Assembly: GCF_002224285.1 (NCBI RefSeq)
Contig: NZ_CP022436.1
Span: forward strand, 4,712,001 to 4,776,000
Source: Arthrobacter sp. YN
GTDB taxonomy: Bacteria; Actinomycetota; Actinomycetes; Actinomycetales; Micrococcaceae
DNA: 64,000 nt
Reading direction: 5' to 3'
The notes under the pieces were generated by a model, which was given only the letters and a program-made list of their open reading frames with translations, was not told the origin of the DNA and did not search any database. Shown here piece after piece: positions 32,375 to 33,477 of the stretch. The translations under genes were made by a program, and so were the position numbers. Each line of letters starts with the position of its first letter. The first letter of the stretch is position 1.

Positions 32375-32811
32375 TTGGGTGGTCCTTCCTGGAAGCTCCA
32401 TCAGCGGTTTGGCTGATGTTTCAACCATCGGACGCAGCCCTCAAGAAGGGCGCCGGGTCATCTCAAGATTCGCTCAAGATTCCGGGGGTCATTTTCAGAA
32501 GCTGACTGCACTGAAAGTCAGCGGCCGTCTGCACTGTGTCTTTGTGTCTTTGTGTCTTTGTGCCTGATAGAGGGTCCTTCAGGACGGCCTCTCTTGTAAG
32601 TATTTCTCAATAGTGGGGCGTGCCCGCCTGCCGCTTGGGCGTCCTACGAGGTAGGTCCCAAGCCAACCGCAACGGCGGGCTGGATCAGAGAGCCCAGGCG
32701 ACTTGACGAGATTTCAGTGCATGGCTATATTTTTTCTCGCAAGAAAAAAGTAAACGGAAGTTCCCCCGCTCAAAGTATGTGCAGTTGCCTGTTTGGGGGG
32801 AAGTACCGTTG

Positions 32812-33250
32812 CAGTAAGACCTGGTCATCGACAGCTTGAGAGGACCAGCGCACCACCAGCAATACCCGGGCCGTCAAGCAGCAGGAGACGGACACAGCAG
32901 TACCTGCAGTACCTGGTCATCGACAGCTTGAGACGACCAGCGAACCACCAGCAATACCCGGGCCGTCAAGCAACAGGAGACGGACACAGCAGTACCAGCA
33001 CCACCAGCAATACCCGGGCCGTCAAGCAACAGGAGACGGACACAGCAGTACCAGCACCACCAGCAATACCCGGGCCGTCAAGCAACAGGAGACGGACAGA
33101 GCAGTACCAGCACCACCAGCAGTACCTGGTCATCGACAGCTTGAGACGACCAGCACCACCAGCAGTACCTGGTCATCGACAGCTTGAGACGACCAGCGCA
33201 CCACCAGCAGTACCTGGTCATCGACAGCTTGAGAGGACCAGCGCACCACC
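32812..33250. repeat. Tandem array of two alternating hairpin-bearing units (A B A B B B A A A)
   Basis: Units A (43-48 bp; copies from 32812, 32907, 33120, 33163, 33208) and B (47-56 bp; from 32860, 32952, 33008, 33064) all open with CA(A/G)TAcc and nearly all close with CCACCAG. Each A unit holds the inverted repeat CTGGTC-N16-GACCAG, and each B unit holds CCGTC-N11-GACGG. B2 and B3 are identical, and B4 differs at one base. Unit lengths are not multiples of three, so the frame drifts and protein coding is unlikely. Confidence 0.9.
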
Positions 33251-33258
33251 CGTAACAT

Positions 33259-33304
33259 GGGGCGGGCAAGTTGAGAGCATTTTTACGCACTCCTTGCCCG
33301 CCCC
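33259..33304. terminator. Strong hairpin closing the repeat array
   Basis: GGGGCGGGCAAG (33259-33270) and CTTGCCCGCCCC (33293-33304) are perfect 12-bp arms around a 22-base loop containing a T-run. It sits eight bases past the last array unit, so it may terminate a transcript through the array in either direction. Confidence 0.7.
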
Positions 33305-33477
33305 GACCGTTCGGGTGCAAAGACGTAACGCTCTCGGTCAAAATATCCTGGCACGCATCTCCAGTAACCAAGAGTTTCGGAGCTTTACCCGAATGACGCG
33401 AGGCGCGTTAGCCGATCCTCCTACGGCGCACAATCGCCAGCGCAGTCAGCTTCTGAAAACGACACCGGGCCGGCACC

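What the first reader, a model, noticed from the sequence alone, without database searches (positions are those of the whole stretch)
32812..33250. Two-unit hairpin minisatellite (A B A B B B A A A) inside the element
Nine tandem units of two kinds alternate irregularly. All nearly share the same borders, but each kind has its own small inverted repeat (CTGGTC/GACCAG or CCGTC/GACGG). The two kinds differ inside yet are spliced at the same joints, as if whole hairpin cassettes were swapped or amplified. A strong 12-bp hairpin follows the last unit. This is not a CRISPR (no variable spacers), not coding, and not a simple one-unit minisatellite. It could be a structured RNA, a protein-binding array or a recombination substrate. 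This is the best candidate in the window for an undescribed element.
Basis: partly seen in the sequence, partly recalled or inferred. Interest (0 to 1): 0.75.

Follow-up and report, generated by a model that had tools for sequence, protein, structure and literature searches.

The report
Mobile tandem-hairpin small RNA gene
This stretch is one copy of a mobile gene, found in Arthrobacter and close relatives, that seems to make an RNA built from a variable string of two kinds of small hairpins, probably a decoy that soaks up some partner molecule in the cell.

Summary
In detail: nine hairpin units in the order ABABBBAAA (32821-33241), then a strong end hairpin. They belong to a larger unit: a sigma-70-type promoter (TTGACG-17-TATATT), a structured head, the array and the end hairpin. 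A pattern from the head alone, and then a covariance model, find it elsewhere; 37 distinct copies were parsed, from 21 Micrococcaceae genomes plus one plasmid record, all with a promoter match. Hairpins differ in number (3-16 by my parser) and order between copies, while the A loop hardly varies and the A stems change by compensation. No frame is conserved, Rfam has no match and neighbours differ, so a trans-acting non-coding RNA is the best reading. The window copy lies in a 978-bp non-autonomous Tn402/Tn5053-like transposon (25-bp terminal repeats, CCGGG duplication, empty site in a relative). Function is inferred: a multivalent decoy for an RNA-binding protein or an RNA. The partner is unknown; CsrA is unlikely in general (absent from 14 of 21 host genomes, this one included). 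Plus-strand transcription is favoured, not proven; folding energy and a terminator-like site point the other way. Five literature searches in a limited library showed no description.

The parts
32482..32486 (.). Target-site duplication CCGGG, left copy
   Evidence: Read; matches 33465-33469; arms extend through it
32487..32511 (+). Left terminal inverted repeat of the Tn402/Tn5053-like element
32563..32583 (.). Imperfect palindrome near the left border of homology to related copies
   Evidence: By eye; a member of the palindromes seen at the borders of other copies, not tested formally
32703..32731 (+). Promoter TTGACG, 17 nt, TATATT
   Evidence: 10 of 12 consensus matches, shuffles give 0.3 promoter-like sites on average; at the same spacing TTGACG in 36 and TATATT in 35 of 37 copies
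32753..32810 (+). Head stem-loop
   Evidence: Pattern hit, 0 in 100 shuffles; consensus structure
32821..33241 (+). Array of nine hairpins, ABABBBAAA, with A/C-rich linkers
   Evidence: stem compensation and loop conservation over copies
33259..33304 (+). End hairpin, probable 3' end or terminator (no T-run after it)
   Evidence: found in all 33 of the 37 copies not cut by a contig end, allowing two substitutions an arm; not reported as terminator-like on the plus strand
33403..33429 (.). Imperfect palindrome near the right end of the element
   Evidence: by eye
33440..33464 (-). Right terminal inverted repeat
33465..33469 (.). Target-site duplication CCGGG, right copy
   Evidence: relative G023 has the flanks side by side without the element

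Best explanation
The array is the body of a small-RNA gene of Micrococcaceae. A sigma-70-type promoter (32703-32731) drives a transcript of about 0.3-0.85 kb with a head stem-loop, a string of A and B hairpins on A/C-rich linkers, and a strong 3' hairpin. The RNA acts in trans as a multivalent decoy: the near-invariant A loop (G)GACAGCUUGA, and the B loop AAGYANNAGGA where present, bind one partner many times over and keep it from its usual targets; an RNA-binding protein is more likely than an RNA. Shown by sequence: the conserved unit, the promoter match, compensatory A-stem changes, A-loop conservation, no conserved frame, variable unit number, differing neighbours, and mobility (here as cargo of a non-autonomous Tn402/Tn5053-like transposon). 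Inferred: transcription, the plus strand, the decoy mode, the kind of partner.
For: 37 distinct copies parsed, all with a promoter match at fixed spacing; the first 24 came from a pattern, or BLAST hits, that did not use the promoter. A stems: 431 of 495 cells paired against 401.1 (sd 4.2) in column shuffles, 0 of 2000 as high; 7 of 9 pairs with double-sided change; slid registers pair 15-43%. G-U exceeds A-C 44 to 25 in A and 4 to 0 in B. Open plus frame through 1 of 29 complete arrays. Largest recurring neighbour group is umuDC beside 4 of 37 copies. No Rfam family.
Against: No transcript data. The minus strand folds further below its shuffles (z -7.3 against -3.1), and head plus T-run is terminator-like on the minus strand, while the plus-strand end hairpin lacks a T-run. 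No partner is identified. Related sequences can beat column shuffles without structure. Loop conservation is partly by the filter used to collect units, B stem pairing too. B is absent from 3 of 29 complete arrays.
Confidence: 0.5

Rival explanations
1. The RNA is a scaffold rather than a decoy: GCUUGA in A loops pairs with UCAAGC in B, within or between molecules, giving a compact or multimeric RNA.
For: 63 of 64 B units keep six pairable bases (G-U counted), the only frequent change (C to U) keeping the pair; a 6-nt match arises in 0.6% of shuffled loop pairs.
Against: 3 of 29 complete arrays have no B, among them G112, where one copy was found. The A loop is largely fixed by the unit filter.
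Confidence: 0.15
2. The array base-pairs with messenger RNAs through its loops or linkers and regulates them as an antisense RNA with many sites.
For: Conserved loops and largely unpaired A/C-rich linkers.
Against: No target search was made beyond the A loop itself: with one mismatch it has one place outside the array in the own genome, against 3 for the reversed control.
Confidence: 0.1
3. The RNA is read from the minus strand and ends at the head stem with its T-run.
For: Terminator-like site at 32772-32751 minus; lower folding z on the minus strand; four copies lie just 3' of umuC on that strand.
Against: Promoter with conserved spacer on the plus strand; G-U bias favours plus; by eye no comparable promoter at the other end.
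Confidence: 0.1
4. The array works as DNA, as a protein-binding or centromere-like array of inverted repeats.
For: Tandem inverted repeats, several copies on plasmids.
Against: Loops are conserved while stems drift by compensation, often through G-U; promoter and head are fixed to it.
Confidence: 0.08
5. A neutral minisatellite in a decaying non-autonomous element.
For: Unit gain and loss; no transposase gene in the element.
Against: Promoter, head, A loop and stem pairing kept over 37 copies in varied places.
Confidence: 0.05

Closest known systems
CsrB/RsmZ-type sponge RNAs (description recalled)
   Same: Many repeated hairpins on one small RNA, suited to titrating a partner
   Different: CsrA is absent from 14 of 21 carrier genomes; the common A loop form GACAGCUUGA has no GGA; mobile; two hairpin kinds in variable order
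ANTAR-target RNAs (passages of PMC8164766)
   Same: Consecutive hairpins separated by linkers, known in actinobacteria including Arthrobacter
   Different: ANTAR hairpins have hexanucleotide loops with A1 and G4 and mostly lie at genes they control; here loops of 10-11 nt and varied neighbours
Type III toxin-antitoxin RNAs such as ToxI (recalled)
   Same: Promoter, tandem RNA repeats of about 35-45 nt, terminator
   Different: No recurring gene follows the array; a toxin family was not searched for
naRNA4 from REP325 of E. coli (passages of PMC6907758)
   Same: RNA from a repetitive palindromic array
   Different: There the source is a REP locus bound by HU; here a dedicated promoter and head, and no partner known
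STAXI motif (passages of PMC2864571)
   Same: Structured motif repeated two or three times
   Different: Pseudoknots, often with UUCG loops, near DNA-handling genes
Tn5053/Tn402 family (passages of PMC7765201)
   Same: 25-bp terminal repeats and 5-bp direct repeats around the window copy
   Different: No tni genes in the element; the RNA gene lies inside it

Membership tests
Tn402/Tn5053-like transposon, non-autonomous (the 978-bp element) | 25-bp terminal inverted repeats of the family | tested here: met
   Repeats at 32487-32511 and 33440-33464; the end resembles one next to annotated TniQ, TniB and Mu-type transposase genes in A. dokdonellae pDCT5, 91% over 33 nt. Of three plasmid regions opened one showed tni genes.
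Tn402/Tn5053-like transposon, non-autonomous (the 978-bp element) | 5-bp target duplication | tested here: met
   CCGGG on both sides; empty site in G023
Tn402/Tn5053-like transposon, non-autonomous (the 978-bp element) | tniABQ-res-tniR genes | tested here: not met
   No open frame for them fits in 978 bp; hence called non-autonomous, not a complete member
CsrA-titrating sponge RNA | CsrA in the host | tested here: not met
   PF02599 in 7 of 21 carrier genomes, not in the window's own; control rang in 3 of 14
CsrA-titrating sponge RNA | GGA in the loop (recalled) | tested here: inconclusive
   GGA in 93 of 154 A loops and in the B loops, absent from the 55 GACAGCTTGA loops
ANTAR-target RNA | Paired hairpins with hexanucleotide loops, A1 and G4 | tested here: not met
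   Loops of 10-11 nt; definition from passages
Type III antitoxin RNA | Adjacent toxin gene of the ToxN kind | not tested
   Neighbours do not recur, but no toxin family search was run
CRISPR array | Identical repeats with unique spacers | tested here: not met
   Linkers are themselves alike and two hairpin kinds alternate
Known Rfam family | Match at gathering score | tested here: not met
   Window: 0 at gathering score; ten loci with E up to 1: one chance-level match outside the array of L059
Protein-coding repeat | Conserved open frame through the array | tested here: not met
   Plus-strand frame open in 1 of 29, minus-strand in 13 of 29 complete arrays

The most novel reading that the evidence does not exclude
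A new class of mobile RNA: a promoter-driven string of interchangeable A and B hairpin modules whose loops pair with one another, so that the RNA assembles into a multivalent scaffold. Its valency is set by gaining or losing modules, and it spreads between chromosomes and plasmids both in palindrome-bordered units and as cargo of mini-Tn402 elements.
Probability: 0.15. Interest if true: 0.85.

Novelty: new variant of a known kind. Interest (0 to 1): 0.62.

Why it matters
If the reading is right, a gene that makes RNA and no protein is a travelling cargo in Micrococcaceae, with up to five copies found in one genome, and its valency changes by adding or losing hairpin modules. That offers a natural dose series (3 to 16 hairpins) for multivalent RNA decoys in actinobacteria, where such RNAs and their partners are little known (general knowledge), and points to an unknown partner that recognises the GACAGCUUGA loop.

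Tried and rejected
Coding array: rejected. CRISPR: rejected. Known Rfam RNA: none. tRNA or tmRNA: none in the window. Phage origin: no match for one copy (L062) in 50,697 phage records, none for the head pattern in viral contigs. CsrA sponge: rejected as a general reading. Cis regulation of one neighbour: rejected, neighbours vary (by a rough gene caller of mine). Folding energy does not settle the strand. Empty site for the G505 copy L100: homology in G424 runs to the border and stops, but my script did not find the anchor, so no empty site is shown. Whether the bordering palindromes are integron attC sites: judged unlike by eye against a recalled consensus, not tested.

Literature: searches (openly licensed PMC papers) list no description of this RNA; only titles and abstract starts were seen, apart from passages of PMC8164766, PMC2864571, PMC6907758 and PMC7765201. 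A 2017 survey of 224 candidate RNAs is not held. Absence from print is not established.

Rows dropped and limits: of 37 parsed copies, 4 are cut by contig ends and 4 hold runs of N, leaving 29 for frame and order counts. One model hit (L083, G190:C50) was not found by the script and is in no unit count. The loop filter admits at most one substitution in A and requires part of the 3' arm in B, so A-loop conservation and B pairing are partly by construction. Unit orders depend on the parser: differ for a few copies (L004, L047, L060). The 24 rows of alignment A1 were picked by the head pattern, so head invariance is by construction. One search stopped with an error, so B has no shuffle control.

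Full report
WHAT IS THERE. The nine units and their order ABABBBAAA are real. A units are a stem CTGGTCATC/GASGACCAG around the loop GACAGCTTGA; B units a stem CCGTC/GACGG around AAGCARCAGGA. Between them lie A/C-rich linkers of the type CAGYARYACC. A hairpin with 12-bp arms closes the array at 33259-33304.

THE TRANSPOSON. The array sits in a 978-bp element (32487-33464) with 25-bp terminal inverted repeats and CCGGG on both sides. Relative G023 has both flanks side by side without the element, and in G033, G034 and G008 homology to the left flank stops within a few bases of the border (G023 site printed). In Arthrobacter dokdonellae pDCT5 such an end lies about 0.1 kb from genes annotated TniQ, TniB and Mu-type transposase; two other regions opened showed no tni genes. 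Passages of PMC7765201 give 25-bp repeats and 5-bp direct repeats for the Tn5053/Tn402 family. The window element carries no tni gene. A second copy of the RNA gene (L053) lies in another such element of about 2.0 kb with CCAAC on both sides; L059 has one matching end; L071 and L091 each have one weaker end-like site. For the other copies neither search saw such ends within 4-6 kb of the sequence held. One copy (L095, G505) lies about 0.6 kb from a TniB- and TniQ-coding operon whose first gene is only weakly like a transposase (rve below its cut-off); no Tn402-like end was found there.

THE RNA GENE. Relatives of the interior define the true unit. BLAST found it on two Arthrobacter plasmids and in two other species. 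A head pattern gave 21 stretches in genome contigs, 20 titled Arthrobacter and 1 Paenarthrobacter, and none in viral contigs. All 24 copies then in hand had a promoter match 48-50 nt before the head. A covariance model of promoter plus head matched 11 of 206 genomes of the genus, 13 of 395 sampled from the family, in three genera, and 1 of 394 sampled from the class, the window's own. Together: 21 genomes plus the A. alpinus A3 plasmid record. 37 distinct copies were parsed; TTGACG is exact in 36, TATATT in 35. The end hairpin is in all 33 copies not cut by a contig end, four of them with runs of N. The distribution is patchy, as for mobile genes.

ARRAY VARIATION. By the parser complete arrays hold 3 to 16 hairpins: AAAAA (L038), twelve A (L070), ABABABABABA (L071), ABABABABAABABAAA (L090). 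L090 and L099 share about 790 bp upstream, beyond the usual border near 500 bp, so they probably mark one insertion in two species, with 16 and 13 units. All 29 complete arrays without N have A; three have no B.

STRUCTURE. Over 154 A units with 55 distinct arm pairs, 431 of 495 cells pair, against a shuffled mean of 401.1 (sd 4.2; 0 of 2000 as high); slid registers pair 15-43%; 7 of 9 pairs have double-sided changes. Relatedness can inflate such a test. The A loop has one of two forms in 148 of 154 units, in a set that the filter had limited to one substitution. B (20 distinct arm pairs, all 100 cells paired) shows no double-sided change, and its 3' arm was part of the filter. G-U exceeds A-C (44 to 25 in A, 4 to 0 in B). 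Conserved loops on drifting stems fit RNA hairpins better than DNA palindromes. The head cannot be tested for covariation, being the search key.

STRAND. Promoter, conserved spacer and G-U bias favour plus. Against it: the minus strand of the window copy folds further below its shuffles (z -7.3 against -3.1; L062 plus strand -4.7), the head with its T-run is terminator-like on the minus strand, and the plus-strand end hairpin has no T-run. I give plus about 0.85.

NOT CODING, NOT CIS. A plus-strand frame is open through 1 of 29 complete arrays, a minus-strand frame through 13 of 29. By my rough gene caller neighbours mostly differ; the largest recurring groups are umuD and umuC beside 4 of 37 copies (Pfam). 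A gene that keeps its form while its neighbours change is expected to act in trans.

HOW IT MAY WORK. Many copies of one loop on a long transcript suggest multivalent binding: a decoy. The classical pair CsrB and CsrA fails as a general reading, since CsrA is in 7 of 21 carrier genomes and not in this one. ANTAR targets fail on loop size. A second idea is loop-loop pairing: GCUUGA of A is complementary to UCAAGC of B, kept in 63 of 64 B units counting G-U, while shuffled loops give a 6-nt match in 0.6%; A-only arrays speak against it as a requirement.

OTHER MOBILITY. Groups of copies share sharp borders of homology other than the Tn402-like ends, about 500 bp or 130-140 bp upstream and up to about 150 bp downstream, at imperfect palindromes. 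Such palindromes occur in 4 of 11 genomes searched, and in ten loci examined no RNA unit lay near them. Which enzyme would use them is unknown.

NOVELTY. No Rfam 15 family matched in what was searched, and the listings of five literature searches show nothing like it, within a limited library. Multi-hairpin small RNAs are a known kind; the two-module variable array, its mobile life and its host group are new as far as I could see.

Noticed in passing
L036, L061, L062, L063, L052; L145, L151, L154, L155: Imperfect palindromes of the type CCCGGTRAAGGATCCYTCACCGGG border RNA units and also other repeated segments without the RNA (two segments about 1.36 kb apart in G033:C21). They look like the borders of palindrome-bounded mobile segments.
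   Followed up: partly
window 32732-32752: Just after the -10 box a T-run and an A-run face each other (TTTTTTCTCG, AAGAAAAAA), conserved in most rows of alignment A1: an operator, a first small hairpin, or a terminator tail for antisense transcripts.
   Followed up: no
32630-32702 and the same place in related copies: Sequence upstream of the promoter (AGGTAGGTCCCGAGCCAACC type) is conserved in many copies, suggesting a regulator site.
   Followed up: no
L135, about 160 bp after the end hairpin of copy L090: A second, partly degenerate head followed by an A hairpin lies right behind the first unit.
   Followed up: no
L005 3767-3800 (G000:C1:4112766-4112799): A lone Tn402-like end elsewhere in the window's own chromosome, 97% like the window's left end over 34 nt, next to a probable NUDIX-type gene (name by eye, no family search); no tni gene seen among the listed frames.
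   Followed up: partly
window 32535-32565: Three and a half copies of an 8-bp repeat TGTGTCTT just inside the left end of the element.
   Followed up: no
L003, L004, L060, L140: Four copies lie directly 3' of and convergent with umuDC genes, two of these loci being on named Arthrobacter plasmids.
   Followed up: partly
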